DNA of 38,591 nt, from the NCBI GenBank assembly GCA_020431405.1, contig JAGQIK010000602.1, positions 1 to 38,591 on the forward strand, read 5' to 3'. This document shows, one piece after another, positions 13,294-28,927 of the stretch (its first letter is position 1; every line of letters begins with the position of its first letter). This DNA is from Myxococcales bacterium. GTDB lineage: Bacteria; Myxococcota_A; Polyangia; GCA-2747355. The notes under the pieces were generated by a model. It saw nothing but the letters and a program-made list of their open reading frames with translations. It was not told where the DNA came from and did no database searches. A program made the translations under genes and the position numbers.

Positions 13294-13496
13294 CGGCGAT
13301 TGCTCCCAGTGAGTGACACCTCGCTGCAAAGCAACCGACGCGCCATCACCCGCGAAACAGCGATCACGCGCGTCTGCGCCGAGCCGCACGGCACATCGCC
13401 ACCGCTTGTTTGCACGCCCGACCATCCGCCCGCCGATGCCGACCGTGAGCAGCGCCGAAGGTCAACGCTTGCGGCGGCGCCCGCAGCGATGCTCTG

Positions 13497-14756
13497 ATGC
13501 GCGACGTGGGCACCCGAGACCCTCTAGGCCGAATCGACCCCGACCACCAGGTGCGCGCGACGACCCCGACGCGGCTCGAGCGACCGCTGCGCGCCGCGGC
13601 GCTGCCGCCCGAGGTCATCGCCGCCGTCGCCGCCTGCAAGCGCCGCCGCGACCTGTGGCGCTCGCCGGTCTACCAGCGCCACCGCGACGCGTTGCTCGAG
13701 CTGACCTACGCGATGGAGCACGAGCCAACGCCTGCCAGCAGCAAGCCGCTCGACCGGCCCTTCATCCGCACCGTCGCCTGGAACATCCAGCGCGGCATGC
13801 GCCTCGACGACATCAAGCGCCTGCTCGACACCCACGAGGCGCTGCGCGACACCGACGTGCTGCTGCTCAACGAGGTCGACATCGGCATGGCGCGCTCGGG
13901 CAACCGCAACATCGCCCGCGAGCTCGCCGAGCACCTCGGTTTCGGCTACGTCTTCGGCAACTCGTACCTCTGCCTGAGCTACGGCGACGCGCGCGACGTG
14001 CAGCAGAGCGCCGAGGCCCGCGGCGGCGAAAACCGCGAGAGCATGCACGGAAACGCGATCATCTCGCGCTTCCCGTTCGTGCACGCCGAGAACATCTCGG
14101 TCGCCATCAGCCGCGACAAGCTCTCCAGCTCCGAGCCGCGCCTCGGCCACAAGAAGGCGCTCTGGGCCGAGCTCGACACACCGCGCGGGCCGCTGCACGT
14201 CTGCGCTACGCACCTCGACGCTTACGCCTCGCTCGCGCAGCGCGGCGAGCAGATGCGCGACGTGCTCTCGCTGCTGCGCGCGCGCCGCATCGACCAGCGC
14301 GCCCTGCTCGGCGGCGACATGAACACCAATACCTATGACGTGGACACGGTGTGGCGGCTGCTCGGCAACTTCGCGCGCAAGATGGTGCGCGGCGGGTTCC
14401 CGCACGCCATCGAGCACTACCTCAAGCCGCACGAGATCTACGAGCGCCCGGTCTTCGACGCCCTCGAGCAGCACGGCTTCGAGTACGCGCCGTTCAACGA
14501 CATGAGCACCGGCACCTCGCGCTACGAGGTCGGCAGCGAAGGTGACGAGAGCGTCATCCGCGAGCTGCTGCCGCGCTTCGCGGTCTGGATCCTCGCCTAC
14601 AAGCTGCGTCCCTGGGACGGCGTGGCGCAGCTCAAGGTCGACTGGTTCTTCGGCCGCGGCCTGCGCGCCAACGCCCCCCAGACGCTGACCCGCGCCAGCG
14701 TCGATGGCCGCGAGGTCTCCGACCACGACCCCATCGTCGTCGACGTCTCTTTCTAG
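13497..14756 (+). CDS. Endonuclease/exonuclease/phosphatase (EEP) family hydrolase
   Basis: A 419-residue protein with a complete EEP (DNase I-like) active site: Asn96 (AWNIQRG), Glu126 (LNEVDIG), His239 (THLDAY), Asp274/Asn276 (GGDMNTN) and Asp409-His410 (SDHDPI). Family members cleave phosphodiesters or phosphomonoesters in nucleic acids, lipids or inositol phosphates, and the sequence alone does not say which. About 90 N-terminal residues precede the fold and contain a helical region (ALPPEVIAAVAACKRRRDLW). There is no signal peptide, so the enzyme is probably cytoplasmic. It diverges from the small basic exported protein across 203 bp. The ATG is the first in frame; no strong Shine-Dalgarno is visible. 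Confidence 0.9.
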   Translation: MRDVGTRDPLGRIDPDHQVRATTPTRLERPLRAAALPPEVIAAVAACKRRRDLWRSPVYQRHRDALLELTYAMEHEPTPASSKPLDRPFIRTVAWNIQRGMRLDDIKRLLDTHEALRDTDVLLLNEVDIGMARSGNRNIARELAEHLGFGYVFGNSYLCLSYGDARDVQQSAEARGGENRESMHGNAIISRFPFVHAENISVAISRDKLSSSEPRLGHKKALWAELDTPRGPLHVCATHLDAYASLAQRGEQMRDVLSLLRARRIDQRALLGGDMNTNTYDVDTVWRLLGNFARKMVRGGFPHAIEHYLKPHEIYERPVFDALEQHGFEYAPFNDMSTGTSRYEVGSEGDESVIRELLPRFAVWILAYKLRPWDGVAQLKVDWFFGRGLRANAPQTLTRASVDGREVSDHDPIVVDVSF

Positions 14757-14897
14757 CCGCGCGCGCTCTGGCAGCCGCACTTGCCAAGCTGGGGGTTCCG
14801 TCCCACGGCGGCGCCGCCCAAACCACCGCGATCGCACGCCTCGACGCCGGCACGCTTCCTGCTCTTTCCAAGCGCGCGCGGGAAGAACGGACAGACC

Positions 14898-15494
14898 ATG
14901 CTTCGCGTTCTTCGAACCACCATCTTCGGCGCCGCCCTCTGCACGCTCGCGGGCAGCGCCAGCCTCGCGGCACCGAGCGAAGGTCATCGCTTCGTTCGCT
15001 ACTACCGCGGAAACAACCATCGCGTGCGCGTCACGCCGCACAACGTGATCGCCGGCAAGTCATCGACCCAGCAACACGTCGCGATCCACGTGCAGACGCT
15101 CGACGGCAAACACCTCGGACACATCGTCTATGGCGACATCAAGCTGCTGCAGCGCAGCGGCAGCTCCTCGCTGGGTGCGCTCGGCGAGCGGCTGGCGCCG
15201 AGCTACGAGGTGCGCGGCAAGCACACCGGCAGCGTCATCGCGCGCTGGACGCCGAGCAAGGGCCTCGTGCTGACCACCGATCTACTGCGCGAGGCGAGCC
15301 ACAACGTCGCCGACGCCAGAGGCCCGTACGGCAACTTCCACGCCGCGGGCAAGAGCGACATGCAGCGCCTCGACCAGGCGCTGCGCACGTCGGGCTCCAA
15401 GATCGAGCTCGGCGAGGTCAACGCGTACACCTACGATCCGCAGGCCAACACGCGCTCGAGCCGTCACGCGCTCGTGCCCGACGCGCACCTCTAG
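14898..15494 (+). CDS. Exported protein of unknown function
   Basis: A 198-residue protein with a Sec signal (MLRVLRTTIFGAALCTLAGSASLAAP), predicted to be cleaved after ALA-like residues near 24. The mature part is soluble, with no Cys: HRFVRYYRGNNHRVRVTPHNVIAGKSST, then HVAIHVQTLDGKHLGHIVYGDIKLL, suggesting beta strands. I start at the ATG at 14898 because it opens the signal; upstream in-frame sequence is low-complexity. I do not recognise a family. It follows the EEP hydrolase by 141 bp on the same strand, so co-transcription is possible but not shown. Confidence 0.72.
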   Translation: MLRVLRTTIFGAALCTLAGSASLAAPSEGHRFVRYYRGNNHRVRVTPHNVIAGKSSTQQHVAIHVQTLDGKHLGHIVYGDIKLLQRSGSSSLGALGERLAPSYEVRGKHTGSVIARWTPSKGLVLTTDLLREASHNVADARGPYGNFHAAGKSDMQRLDQALRTSGSKIELGEVNAYTYDPQANTRSSRHALVPDAHL

Positions 15495-15531
15495 CCGCTC
15501 ACTTCATTCAGCGCGCTCGGGATCGACAGCG

Positions 15532-15846
15532 CTAGCGGACGCGGCGAATCGGTCCGCTGTACGGCGTGGTCTCGATCAGATCGGGATCGACGAAGTGCAT
15601 GTCGCGCCGCGTGCGGTTCTGCGGCCGCGGCTGCCGCACCCGCGCCTGCGAGCCTGCAAGGTCACGCGGCCCGGCGACCTGCCGCCGTCCAGCAACGTGC
15701 CGCGCCAGCACGGGCGGCTCCATCTCGGGGATGGTGTCCGGGCCCGCCGGGCGATAGCGGCTGGCGATCAGCCCATCGGGCCGCGTCTGGACGTCGGTGT
15801 CCTCGTCGAAGTCGCTGCGGAACACGCTGTCGTTGTAGAACGCCAT
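15532..15846 (-). CDS. Small hypothetical hydrophilic protein
   Basis: A 104-residue reading frame (MAFYNDSVFRSDFDEDTDVQTRPDG) with an acidic N-terminal part, a Pro/Arg-rich middle and the ending DPDLIETTPYSGPIRRVR. No signal peptide, membrane segment or Cys is visible, and the protein looks largely disordered. A TTG seven codons upstream is an alternative start. GGGAG touches the ATG, which is too close for a normal Shine-Dalgarno, so the start is uncertain. The frame is open over the entire gap between its neighbours and no competing gene is present. Existence moderately likely; function unknown. Confidence 0.5.
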   Translation of the reverse strand: MAFYNDSVFRSDFDEDTDVQTRPDGLIASRYRPAGPDTIPEMEPPVLARHVAGRRQVAGPRDLAGSQARVRQPRPQNRTRRDMHFVDPDLIETTPYSGPIRRVR

Positions 15847-15940
15847 CTCCCGCCAACAGGAGAGCAATCTCCATACCGCCGCCTGACGCGCTCCAACTGC
15901 GCGACCACACTAGCGCGCCTCGTCGCGCTGCGCCCCTGCT

Positions 15941-15980
15941 GTGGAATCGACTCCACGCTCGGATGTGGAGTCGACTCTAC
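15941..15980. repeat. Pair of inverted quasi-palindromes forming a long hairpin
   Basis: GTGGAATCGACTCCAC (15941-15956) and GTGGAGTCGACTCTAC (15965-15980) can form a 16-position stem with 14 Watson-Crick pairs, one G-T and one A-C, around an 8-base loop. Each arm is itself nearly palindromic around ATCGACT or AGTCGACT. The site lies 11 bp beyond the stop of the protein-glutaminase gene on the minus strand. It may be its terminator, though no T-run follows, or a double operator for a dimeric DNA-binding protein. Confidence 0.65.
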
Positions 15981-15991
15981 GGCTCGCCTCG

Positions 15992-17356
15992 TCAGCGGCA
16001 GACATCGTCGCTGCCGAGCGTGCGCCCGACGCAGCCCGACTCGCAGGCGACGAACACCGGCCCGCTGCCGTCGCACTTGTAGAGCCGCCCGCCGCTGCAG
16101 GTCCACAGCTGCACGCTGCCGTAGGCCGAGCTCGTGCAGCTCCAGCTCGACGAGGCCGCCGCCGAGATGCAGTAGTCGCGCTTGCCCGCCGCCGCGCCGT
16201 AGCAACCGCGCGTGCAGGTCTGCGCCGTCGGCGTGCTGCCCACGCACTTGCGCACGTGCGTCTGCCCGTCGCAGGTCCAAAGCTGCGCGCCGAGGTACGA
16301 CGAGCGCGCGCAGCTCCAGCTGCCCGAGGGCGCGGGCGACGGCGGCGTCGGCGCAGGCGGCGTCGGCGCCGGCGCGCTCGGCGTGACCCAGTTGCCACCG
16401 TCGCCGCACTGGTAGCTGCCCACCCGCGAGCCCGGCGCCATGCAGCGGCCGAGCGAGTTGCTCCAACAGAAGTAGACCGACGCGAGGCAGCAGTCCTTGC
16501 TCGTCGGGTTGGTGTTGCCGTCGTCGGGCATGCAGCCAGCCGGACCGCTCGCCGCCTGATAGTCGCGACAGCTCGCCGACAGCTGGCTCGCCGAGCCGCT
16601 GAGCTTGCCGCGCGCCGACAGCTCGCCGAGAGTCTGCAGCGTGATCTGGCTCAGGCGCCGGTGCTTGTAGAGCTTGGTGGAAAGCGACGTCTGCTCTTCG
16701 AGCTCGATGTAGCGGTGCATCACCTCGCAGGCGCTGTTGATCGTCGAGATCGAGTAGCTCGGCATCTGCGCGAAAGGCGGCTCGCCGTATCGTGCCGCGT
16801 CGGGGCTGCGCGGGTTCTGCACGGCGTCGCCGCTGCCCCACGACCCGTACGAGGTGCCCGGCTGCACGATCAGGTTCGGGTAGCCAACCCACGACACGTC
16901 GCTGAAGCGCGCGTCCTGGCGTGCGACCCAGTCGGCGAGCCGCACCGACTGGTTGCGGTCGAAGAGCGGGTCGAGCACGTAGAGCTGGCTCGGGTCTCCG
17001 TCGCGCTTGACCACCGGCGCGACGTGGTAACGCCAGCGCCCCATGATCGGATAGCCGCTCTTGGCGACGCAGTAGACGTGGTTCGACGGGATGCCCATCG
17101 AGGCCAACGTCATCGAGAAGTAGAAGGCGCGCGCGTAGCAGCCGTCGCTGGTGTACTTCCACGGCAGATACGGCAGCCCCGCCAGGTGGCGCACGGCCGC
17201 GTCGAAGTCGCCCTTGTTGAGCGTGGTCTCGCGCTCGTGACTCGCAGCGGAGGGCGCCGGCGGATCCTCGCCGAGGGTACCGACCGCGCCGGGCCCGCAG
17301 CCAGCGGCGGCGAGCGCGAGGAGAACAACAAGGAGGAGATAGCGTCTGGTTTTCAT
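15992..17356 (-). CDS. Protein-glutaminase-like lipoprotein with Cys-rich repeats
   Basis: A 454-residue lipoprotein with lipobox LAAAGC, lipidated at Cys20. The N-terminal domain carries the signature of secreted protein-glutaminases such as that of Chryseobacterium: DGCYARAFYFSMTLASMGIP with Cys73, WRYHVAPVV with His111 and YVLDPLFD with Asp129, a papain-like triad. Such enzymes deamidate glutamine side chains in proteins. A Cys-containing middle part, a Pro-rich linker (SAPAPTPPAPTPPSPAPS) and two tandem Cys-rich repeats follow (SWSCARSSYLGAQLWTCDG and SWSCTSSAYGSVQLWTCSG), possibly an adhesion or binding module. AAAGGA eight bases before the ATG at 17354-17356 fixes the start. Family resemblance is good, activity is inferred. 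Confidence 0.8.
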   Translation of the reverse strand: MKTRRYLLLVVLLALAAAGCGPGAVGTLGEDPPAPSAASHERETTLNKGDFDAAVRHLAGLPYLPWKYTSDGCYARAFYFSMTLASMGIPSNHVYCVAKSGYPIMGRWRYHVAPVVKRDGDPSQLYVLDPLFDRNQSVRLADWVARQDARFSDVSWVGYPNLIVQPGTSYGSWGSGDAVQNPRSPDAARYGEPPFAQMPSYSISTINSACEVMHRYIELEEQTSLSTKLYKHRRLSQITLQTLGELSARGKLSGSASQLSASCRDYQAASGPAGCMPDDGNTNPTSKDCCLASVYFCWSNSLGRCMAPGSRVGSYQCGDGGNWVTPSAPAPTPPAPTPPSPAPSGSWSCARSSYLGAQLWTCDGQTHVRKCVGSTPTAQTCTRGCYGAAAGKRDYCISAAASSSWSCTSSAYGSVQLWTCSGGRLYKCDGSGPVFVACESGCVGRTLGSDDVCR

Positions 17357-24431: not shown

Positions 24432-27248
<2,817 letters not shown>

Positions 27249-27254
27249 GCGCAG

Positions 27255-27866
27255 CTACGACCGGCCCTTGAGATCGGCCAGCACGTGCTCGGCGGCGCGG
27301 GCGGCCTCCTGGATGTTGGCCTCGGGGCCACCCAGGTAGATGCGCCCGAAGGCGCCGAAGGCGCGAAACTCGAGCACGTTGATCGGCGCTGCTTTTTCGG
27401 CTTCGTTGGCCGCGATCGCCGCGTAGCCGGCCGGACGAACCTCGAGCACGTAGAGCGCCTCGTTCTCGCCGATCATGTTGCCGTGGCGCATGCGGTTGAT
27501 CAGCTGCGACTGATAGCCCTCGAGACCGGTGATGATCTCGTTGGAGATGACCTGCGGCTTCATGCGGTCGTGCTCGGTGAGCCCCATGCGCTCGAGGATC
27601 GCGGCGCCGGCCTCGCGCACCTGGCCCTGATCCTCGTGGTGCAGCTCGAGCAGCCCGTAGGCGCGCTCGACGATGAGCATGCCCGGCGTCGCCGCGGTGC
27701 GCTTGAGCGCCACGTCTGTGAGCTCGTTGATCGCGATGCCTGGCGCTATCTCGACGAACAGCGAGGCCTGCTCCTCCAGCGGCATGAAGCCTGGGCAGAC
27801 GGTCTGCAGAAAGCCCGTGACCTGAGGTTGCAGGATGTCGATGAAGCTGAACGTGCGCAGCTGCAT
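27255..27866 (-). CDS. Tandem-BMC shell protein (BMC-T), CsoS1D/CcmP-like
   Basis: A 203-residue protein with two bacterial microcompartment domains. Domain 1 is about residues 34-95 (QASLFVEIAPGIAINELTDVAL, then MLIVERAYGLLELHHEDQGQV). Domain 2 is about 135-200 (ALYVLEVRPAGYAAIAANEAE, then FRAFGAFGRIYLGG). The N-terminal LRTFSFIDILQPQVTGFLQTV and linker DRMKPQVISNEII resemble, from memory, the carboxysome proteins CsoS1D and CcmP, whose pores are gated by an adjacent Glu-Arg pair; here Glu67-Arg68 occupy the VER motif. Such proteins form trimers that stack into gated double layers. No RuBisCO, other shell genes or encapsulated enzymes are in this window. It heads a two-gene unit with the aminopeptidase. 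BMC call strong, subfamily moderate. Confidence 0.85.
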   Translation of the reverse strand: MQLRTFSFIDILQPQVTGFLQTVCPGFMPLEEQASLFVEIAPGIAINELTDVALKRTAATPGMLIVERAYGLLELHHEDQGQVREAGAAILERMGLTEHDRMKPQVISNEIITGLEGYQSQLINRMRHGNMIGENEALYVLEVRPAGYAAIAANEAEKAAPINVLEFRAFGAFGRIYLGGPEANIQEAARAAEHVLADLKGRS

Positions 27867-27961
27867 GGTGGCCTCGTGAGGGGGGACAGGCTGGTCTACC
27901 AGCGACGCGACGAGCGTGTCAACGCATTCACCTTGCCGGACGTCTCGTCGCGGGCCTCGGT

Positions 27962-27990
27962 TTGCGCGGTGTGCCCCGCTGGGATAGCAT
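27962..27990 (+). promoter_or_regulatory. Candidate promoter of the rightward TPR/lipoprotein pair
   Basis: TTGCGC (27962-27967) and TAGCAT (27985-27990) are exactly 17 bp apart, 23 bases before the ATG at 28013. Matches to the sigma-70 consensus are 3/6 and 4/6. It sits in the only intergenic gap upstream of the pair. Confidence 0.35.
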
Positions 27991-28012
27991 CAAATCTAAC
28001 TTACGGGGATCA

Positions 28013-28927
28013 ATGCAAAGAGCGCTTAGTTATGCCCTGGCGGCGGCGCTGCTGTGCAGCCTGCCCTCTTCGGCCGTCGCCAAGAAGCGAAACATCAGCC
28101 CCGCCGAGCGCAAGCTCGCGCAGCGGCACTTCGAGCTGGCCAGTACCTACTACCAGCAGGCCGCCTACGACGAGGCGCTCAAGTACTTCGACAAGTCGTA
28201 CCAGCTCAGCGGCGAGCCAGCGCTGCTCTTCAACATCGGCAAGTGCTACGAGGCGCTGGGCAAGCTCGAGCAGGCGATCGCGAGCTACCGTGCCTTCCTC
28301 AAGGACAGCGGCAGCAACCCTACCGTCGAGGCGCGTATCCGCAACCTCAGCAGTCGGCTGCCCAAGAAGGCGCCCGTGCCCAAACCCGCGCCGAAGCCGG
28401 CGCCCAAAGCCGGCGGCGACGACCCCAAGGCCAAGCCCAACACGCCCGCGAGCACGCCGAAGACGGCCAGCGCGACGCCTGCGCCGGCCAAGGACCCACC
28501 CGCCAGCAGCACGCCGCCCGCGGCCGCGCCGAGCGACAGCGGCGGCGCGCGCACCTGGAGCTGGTGGACCGGCTGGGCGCTCGCCGGCGCGGGCGTGGCC
28601 GCCGTCGGTCTCGGCATCGCCTTCGGCGTGATCGCCAAGAACAAGGCCGACAGCGTGCAAGGCTACTACCGCGACGGCAATCGAGACTGGAGCGAGGTCG
28701 AGCCCATCGCCAGCGACGGTCAGACCTTCGAGACGGCGCAGGTCGTCTCGCTGGCCGTGGGCGTCGGGCTCGCCGCGGGCGGCGCCGCGCTGCTGTTGTT
28801 CTTGCCGCGCAAGAAGGAGCCGAGCGCACGCGCTGGCCTGGGATCCAGCGGTCTGGGATCCAACGTGTCCGTGGCCCCGGTCATCGGCAGCGGCCTCTAC
28901 GGCGTCGCCGGCGCCTTGCGCTTCTAG
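28013..28927 (+). CDS. Exported TPR protein with two C-terminal membrane helices
   Basis: A 304-residue protein. It has a Sec signal (1-23), then two to three TPR-like helices (residues 30-117: RHFELASTYYQQAAYDEALKYF, LLFNIGKCYEALGKLEQAIASY), then a Pro/Ala/Lys linker (118-180). Two hydrophobic segments follow (about 185-207 and 244-265), and a C-terminus VAPVIGSGLYGVAGALRF. GGGG lies just before the ATG at 28013. The gene at 30877-31881 has the same architecture and a matching C-terminus (FAPVIGGGNFGVAGAIRF), so the two are paralogues. Each is followed by a Cys-motif lipoprotein gene. TPRs mediate protein-protein contacts, so an envelope scaffold is the likely role; the exact function is unknown. 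Confidence 0.85.
   Translation: MQRALSYALAAALLCSLPSSAVAKKRNISPAERKLAQRHFELASTYYQQAAYDEALKYFDKSYQLSGEPALLFNIGKCYEALGKLEQAIASYRAFLKDSGSNPTVEARIRNLSSRLPKKAPVPKPAPKPAPKAGGDDPKAKPNTPASTPKTASATPAPAKDPPASSTPPAAAPSDSGGARTWSWWTGWALAGAGVAAVGLGIAFGVIAKNKADSVQGYYRDGNRDWSEVEPIASDGQTFETAQVVSLAVGVGLAAGGAALLLFLPRKKEPSARAGLGSSGLGSNVSVAPVIGSGLYGVAGALRF

What the first reader, a model, noticed from the sequence alone, without database searches (positions are those of the whole stretch)
27255..27866. Orphan CsoS1D/CcmP-like microcompartment shell protein
Both BMC domains, the N-terminal extension and the Glu-Arg pore pair look like the gated, stacking shell proteins of carboxysomes, yet the gene sits alone in front of an M1 aminopeptidase in a presumably heterotrophic bacterium. 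With no hexamer, pentamer or cargo genes nearby, it either serves a distant compartment locus or has a role outside compartments, such as a stand-alone gated pore assembly.
Basis: partly seen in the sequence, partly recalled or inferred. Interest (0 to 1): 0.8.

Follow-up and report, generated by a model that had tools for sequence, protein, structure and literature searches.

The report
Satellite gene for HO-type microcompartment shell
The lone gene codes for a gated trimer tile of a bacterial microcompartment, the counterpart of the solved BMC-T3 (HO-3341) protein of Haliangium ochraceum; its shell partners lie elsewhere in the same genome, so it is an ordinary, already described arrangement rather than a free-standing pore.

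Summary
The gene is real: 203 aa on the MINUS strand, 27255-27866. It is a double-layer, CcmP/CsoS1D-type BMC-T protein. Its best solved relative is H. ochraceum BMC-T HO-3341 (PDB 5V76; 65% identity; model TM-score 0.98). The Glu-Arg pore pair is present (E67-R68). The claimed N-terminal extension is not: residue 1 of this protein matches residue 1 of HO-3341.

It is isolated on its contig but not in its genome. Contig C586 carries a main shell locus, T2-H-P1-aldehyde dehydrogenase-T1. C298 carries P2-P3-aldolase. Together these match the published HO-type consolidated locus.

Orthologues form a clade (58 loci plus 5V76) with no hexamer, P1 or T1 gene within 6 kb. In 114 genomes of the class, all 42 with a BMC-T of this family also have BMC-P. 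M1 adjacency occurs only here; in a related genome the M1 gene is 2 kb away and divergent.

Most likely role: a gated facet tile for sugar-phosphate-sized metabolites. A DeoC aldolase with an encapsulation-peptide-like N-terminus, in a nucleoside-catabolism cluster, suggests DNA-sugar catabolism. More unusual, found in passing: a separate array of four extra BMC-P genes.

The parts
27255..27866 (-). BMC-T(dp), orthologue of H. ochraceum BMC-T3 / HO-3341: 203 aa double-layer trimer shell protein
   Evidence: phmmer 7.7e-84 to 5V76; AlphaFold2 pLDDT 94, TM 0.98 to 5V76; tree clade with 5V76, SH-aLRT 95
27663..27668 (-). codons of the Glu67-Arg68 pore pair (E120-R121 of CsoS1D, E69-R70 of CcmP by alignment offset)
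   Evidence: invariant in A1, 34 sequences; offsets
27893..27922 (-). possible own promoter: TTGACA, 18 nt, TAGACC, 26 nt upstream of the ATG; a similar TTGACA-18-TACAGA lies upstream of the orthologue in G003. Weak -10, not reported by the consensus scan
   Evidence: read by eye; scan negative
24432..27248 (-). M1 aminopeptidase with a lipobox-like N-terminus (LSCVVAC), so probably exported; a neighbour, not part of the shell system
   Evidence: Pfam PF01433, PF17900, PF11838; N-terminus; not adjacent to T3 in any other locus examined

Best explanation
The gene is a solitary satellite gene of an HO-type bacterial microcompartment. It encodes BMC-T3, the orthologue of H. ochraceum HO-3341. Two trimers stack face to face and fill a hexagonal facet position of a shell whose other tiles come from the main locus (T2, H, P1, T1) on contig C586 and the P2-P3 satellite on C298. 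Its central pore is gated by Glu67 and Arg68, and the stacked pair acts as an air-lock for metabolites too large for hexamer pores, most likely phosphorylated sugars or their products. Shown here: family, fold, pore residues, presence of all shell partners and an aldehyde dehydrogenase in the genome, and co-occurrence. Inferred: incorporation into the same shell, stacking, gating, and the metabolite. The proposed pathway is deoxyribose-5-phosphate split by an encapsulated DeoC into glyceraldehyde-3-phosphate and acetaldehyde, then acetaldehyde oxidised by the encapsulated aldehyde dehydrogenase; this last part is the least certain (about 0.5).
For: Closest solved chain is 'Haliangium ochraceum BMC-T HO-3341' at 65% identity and TM 0.98. 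The main locus T2-H-P1-AldDh-T1 is on C586, and P2-P3-class II aldolase on C298; the latter is what PMC8217296 describes for type I HO loci. PMC11924220 lists T3 as one of five tile types of HO shells, with T2 and T3 stacking. A T3 clade of 58 loci without H, P1 or T1 within 6 kb contains 5V76, apart from the T2 clade that contains 5V74. All 42 genomes with the family have BMC-P. In some relatives T3 lies 5-10 kb from HO genes: L020 (whole main locus), L022, L027, L070 (T2), L028 (P2-P3-aldolase). The five conserved pore residues of CsoS1D described in PMC13316943 (R57, E120, R121, R178, R229) correspond to R4, E67, R68, R125 and R175, all invariant in 34 relatives. DeoC (C362) carries an N-terminal helix MDQELERIADIVAARVREHIG resembling the AldDh N-terminus MELDEKRIQQIVDRVVSRLG; the helix is conserved in G003 and G001, and the gene sits with pyrimidine nucleoside phosphorylase, nucleoside transporter and purine nucleoside phosphorylase genes.
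Against: No expression or assembly data. Native incorporation of T3 was not tested here; in recombinant HO shells T3 is optional (minimal shells form without it). The assembly is fragmented (733 contigs), so the physical distance from the other shell genes is unknown. G002 (83% complete) shows no T3, and 8 of 50 BMC-P-bearing genomes of the class have no protein of this family, so T3 is not essential to a BMC. The five-residue correspondence rests on alignment offsets, with a one-residue indel before R229.
Confidence: 0.9

Rival explanations
1. A stand-alone gated pore or sheet that works outside any microcompartment.
For: The gene is solitary in nearly all orthologous loci, with a possible promoter of its own.
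Against: 42 of 42 genomes with the family also carry BMC-P; the own genome has every HO tile; the orthologue HO-3341 is used as a tile of HO shells.
Confidence: 0.03
2. Functional pairing with the M1 aminopeptidase, as cargo or shared operon.
For: Same strand, 6-bp gap in the window.
Against: No M1 beside T3 in the other loci examined; in G003 the M1 gene is 2 kb away, divergent, with two genes between; the M1 protein has a lipobox-like export signal rather than an encapsulation peptide.
Confidence: 0.04
3. A true carboxysome protein (CsoS1D or CcmP).
For: NCBIfam CcmP model hits at E 4.5e-77.
Against: Score 258.5 is below that model's cut-off of 340; no Rubisco large subunit in the genome; nearest relative is HO-3341.
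Confidence: 0.01
4. A decaying or dispensable leftover of an HO shell gene.
For: Optional in recombinant shells; not found in G002.
Against: Intact frame, 81% and 78% identity to orthologues in two other genera, all pore residues kept.
Confidence: 0.02

Closest known systems
Haliangium ochraceum BMC-T3, HO-3341 (PDB 5V76)
   Same: Length, both BMC halves, 65% identity over the full length, pore pair, same clade of solitary genes
   Different: Sequence diverged by about a third; the gene neighbourhood of HO-3341 itself was not examined here. No functional difference detected
H. ochraceum BMC-T2, HO-5816 (PDB 5V74, 5V75)
   Same: Fold and pore residues
   Different: 52-53% identity; T2 lies in the main locus and in a separate clade; the own genome has its own T2 on C586
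CcmP (beta-carboxysome; 4HT5, 5LSR)
   Same: Fold, Glu-Arg gate
   Different: 51% identity, below the CcmP cut-off, no Rubisco
CsoS1D (alpha-carboxysome; 3F56, 7DHQ)
   Same: Fold and five pore residues by alignment
   Different: 41-43% identity; CsoS1D has an N-terminal extension that is absent here

Membership tests
HO-type BMC, BMC-T3 (HO-3341) | Closest to HO-3341 among solved BMC-T(dp) and in its clade | tested here: met
HO-type BMC, BMC-T3 (HO-3341) | Main locus with T(dp), BMC-H, BMC-P, aldehyde dehydrogenase and a second BMC-T in the same genome | tested here: met
   C586 13431-16950
HO-type BMC, BMC-T3 (HO-3341) | BMC-P triplet, with two BMC-P plus an aldolase in a satellite (type I HO) | tested here: met
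   C298 1172-2714; definition from PMC8217296
HO-type BMC, BMC-T3 (HO-3341) | Forms stacked trimers that enter the shell | not testable with these tools
   Inferred from HO-3341
Satellite locus (PMC4207490, PMC8217296) | Incomplete shell gene set, with a complete BMC locus elsewhere in the genome | tested here: met
   definition
CcmP | NCBIfam NF053796 equivalog cut-off 340 bits | tested here: not met
   258.5 bits
CsoS1D or CcmP (carboxysome) | Rubisco in the genome | tested here: not met
   PF00016 absent
CsoS1D | N-terminal extension before the first BMC domain | tested here: not met
   Residue 2 aligns to residue 80 of the CsoS1D chain
CsoS1D/CcmP-type gated BMC-T | Conserved pore residues R57, E120, R121, R178, R229 (CsoS1D numbering) | tested here: met
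   R4, E67, R68, R125, R175 invariant in A1; correspondence by offset

The most novel reading that the evidence does not exclude
The T3 protein serves an HO-type shell that, in this lineage, draws on seven BMC-P genes: the usual triplet plus a separate array of four that form their own clade and that in one related family are the only source of pentamers found. The organelle splits DNA-derived deoxyribose-5-phosphate with an encapsulation-peptide-tagged DeoC, with T3 as the gated port for the sugar phosphate.
Probability: 0.35. Interest if true: 0.5.

Novelty: new member of a known kind. Interest (0 to 1): 0.22.

Why it matters
It removes a claim of a free-standing BMC pore and places the gene in a structurally well-studied but functionally unassigned organelle. 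It also shows how a shell gene can look orphaned when only one contig is read. The tagged DeoC (three genomes of the order) beside nucleoside-catabolism genes (seen in this genome) supports the published guess that HO compartments break down nucleic acid sugars.

Tried and rejected
Operon or cargo link with M1: rejected, adjacency not conserved. A conserved T3 neighbour across the clade: none; neighbour families recur only within sublineages, in at most 8 of 60 loci. EUT-module satellite: no EutB in the genome. Carboxysome: no Rubisco. Sigma-70 consensus scan around the gene found no promoter. The other PF01791 hit (C475) looks like a class I fructose-bisphosphate aldolase without an N-terminal tag (judged by eye) and was set aside. 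Trimer prediction was not possible; the tool folds single chains only.

Full report
OBSERVATION. The ORF is at 27255-27866 on the minus strand, 203 aa. By phmmer the best solved chain is 5V76 (E 7.7e-84), then H. ochraceum HO-5816, CcmP and CsoS1D. Foldseek names 5V76 as 'Haliangium ochraceum BMC-T HO-3341', at 65% identity and TM 0.98 to the AlphaFold2 model (pLDDT 94). The Pfam BMC profile sees only the second half and stays below cut-off; this weakness of the profile for CsoS1D/CcmP-type proteins is published (PMC4207490). The Glu-Arg pair is E67-R68. The claimed N-terminal extension does not exist: alignment begins at residue 1.

GENOME CONTEXT. The window is contig C412 of an 11.2-Mb, 733-contig genome, 95.7% complete. 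PF00936 finds a second locus on C586, and PF03319 finds BMC-P genes on C586, C298 and C129. C586 holds, in order, T2 (13431-14069), H (14149-14445), P1 (14449-14742), aldehyde dehydrogenase (14783-16243) and T1 (16258-16950). C298 holds P2, P3 and a class II aldolase.

RELATIVES. In a tree of 93 BMC-T(dp) rows the window protein groups with G003 and G001 (SH-aLRT 99) and then with 5V76 and other myxococcal proteins (95). The wider T3 clade (support 91) holds 58 loci, all without H, P1 or T1 within 6 kb, plus 5V76. T2 proteins, with 5V74, form another clade (100). Many contigs are short, so 'solitary' is partly a matter of contig ends. In several relatives T3 lies 5-10 kb from HO genes (L020, L022, L027, L070, L028). 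In 114 genomes of the class, 42 have a protein of this family and all 42 have BMC-P, against 8 of the other 72 (Fisher p 2e-23, not corrected for kinship). The family search counts both T2 and T3; by match score 36 of the 42 have a T3-type hit.

NEIGHBOUR. The M1 aminopeptidase begins 6 bases after the T3 stop codon, but no other locus examined has it adjacent. In G003 it is 2 kb away, divergent and separated by two genes. Its N-terminus has a lipobox, so it is probably exported. A TTGACA-18-TAGACC sequence upstream of T3, with a similar one in G003, may be its own promoter; the consensus scan did not report it.

MECHANISM. T2 and T3 trimers stack and are used as facet tiles in HO shells (PMC11924220). 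A 2026 simulation study of CsoS1D names five conserved residues as an electrostatic air-lock for phosphorylated metabolites (PMC13316943); by alignment offset they are R4, E67, R68, R125 and R175 here, invariant in 34 relatives. The simplest account is a gated port in an HO shell. For substrate, PMC8217296 proposes nucleic acid catabolism and notes DeoC proteins with encapsulation-like tags in some HO genomes. Here DeoC on C362 has such an N-terminus, with amphipathic moment 0.49 against a 95th percentile of 0.44 within the protein, similar to that of the aldehyde dehydrogenase, and it is conserved in G003 and G001. It lies with pyrimidine and purine nucleoside phosphorylases and a nucleoside transporter. 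A fused acetate kinase-PduL protein on C392 could complete acetyl-CoA to acetate conversion, though it is not shown to be encapsulated.

VERDICT. Already understood in kind: an orthologue of BMC-T3 in a satellite position. The item I would hand on is the four-gene BMC-P array (see Noticed in passing), which I did not find described in the papers read; that is not proof of novelty.

Noticed in passing
L098 9680-10963 (G000:C129:16680-17963), minus strand: Tandem array of four extra BMC-P genes away from P1 and P2-P3, giving seven BMC-P genes. The same four-gene array is found in G003, G004, G040 and G067; the sampled array proteins form one clade apart from P1, P2 and P3 (SH-aLRT 86).
   Followed up: partly
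L137, L138, L142 (arrays) and L144, L145, L146 (main loci) of family f4: G034, G020, G061: In these genomes the four-gene array is the only BMC-P source found, and the main locus is T2-H-(unrelated ORF)-AldDh-T1 without P1. The array pentamers therefore probably cap HO-type shells.
   Followed up: partly
L151 5122-5994 (G000:C362), plus strand: DeoC with an encapsulation-peptide-like N-terminus, in a cluster with pyrimidine nucleoside phosphorylase, nucleoside transporter and purine nucleoside phosphorylase.
   Followed up: yes
L149 6000-7922 (G000:C392), minus strand: Fusion of acetate kinase and PduL-type phosphotransacylase in one 640-aa frame.
   Followed up: partly
L021, L024, L033, L049, L061 (Planctomycetota): T3-type genes followed directly by an aldehyde dehydrogenase only 28-33% identical to the HO enzyme, without H, P1 or T1 homologues found nearby: a possible different satellite type.
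   Followed up: no
window 27962-28927 (+); L147 6577-7443 and L148 5760-6689 (-): A TPR-type protein gene lies next to T3 in all three genomes of the order with T3, but in different orientations.
   Followed up: no
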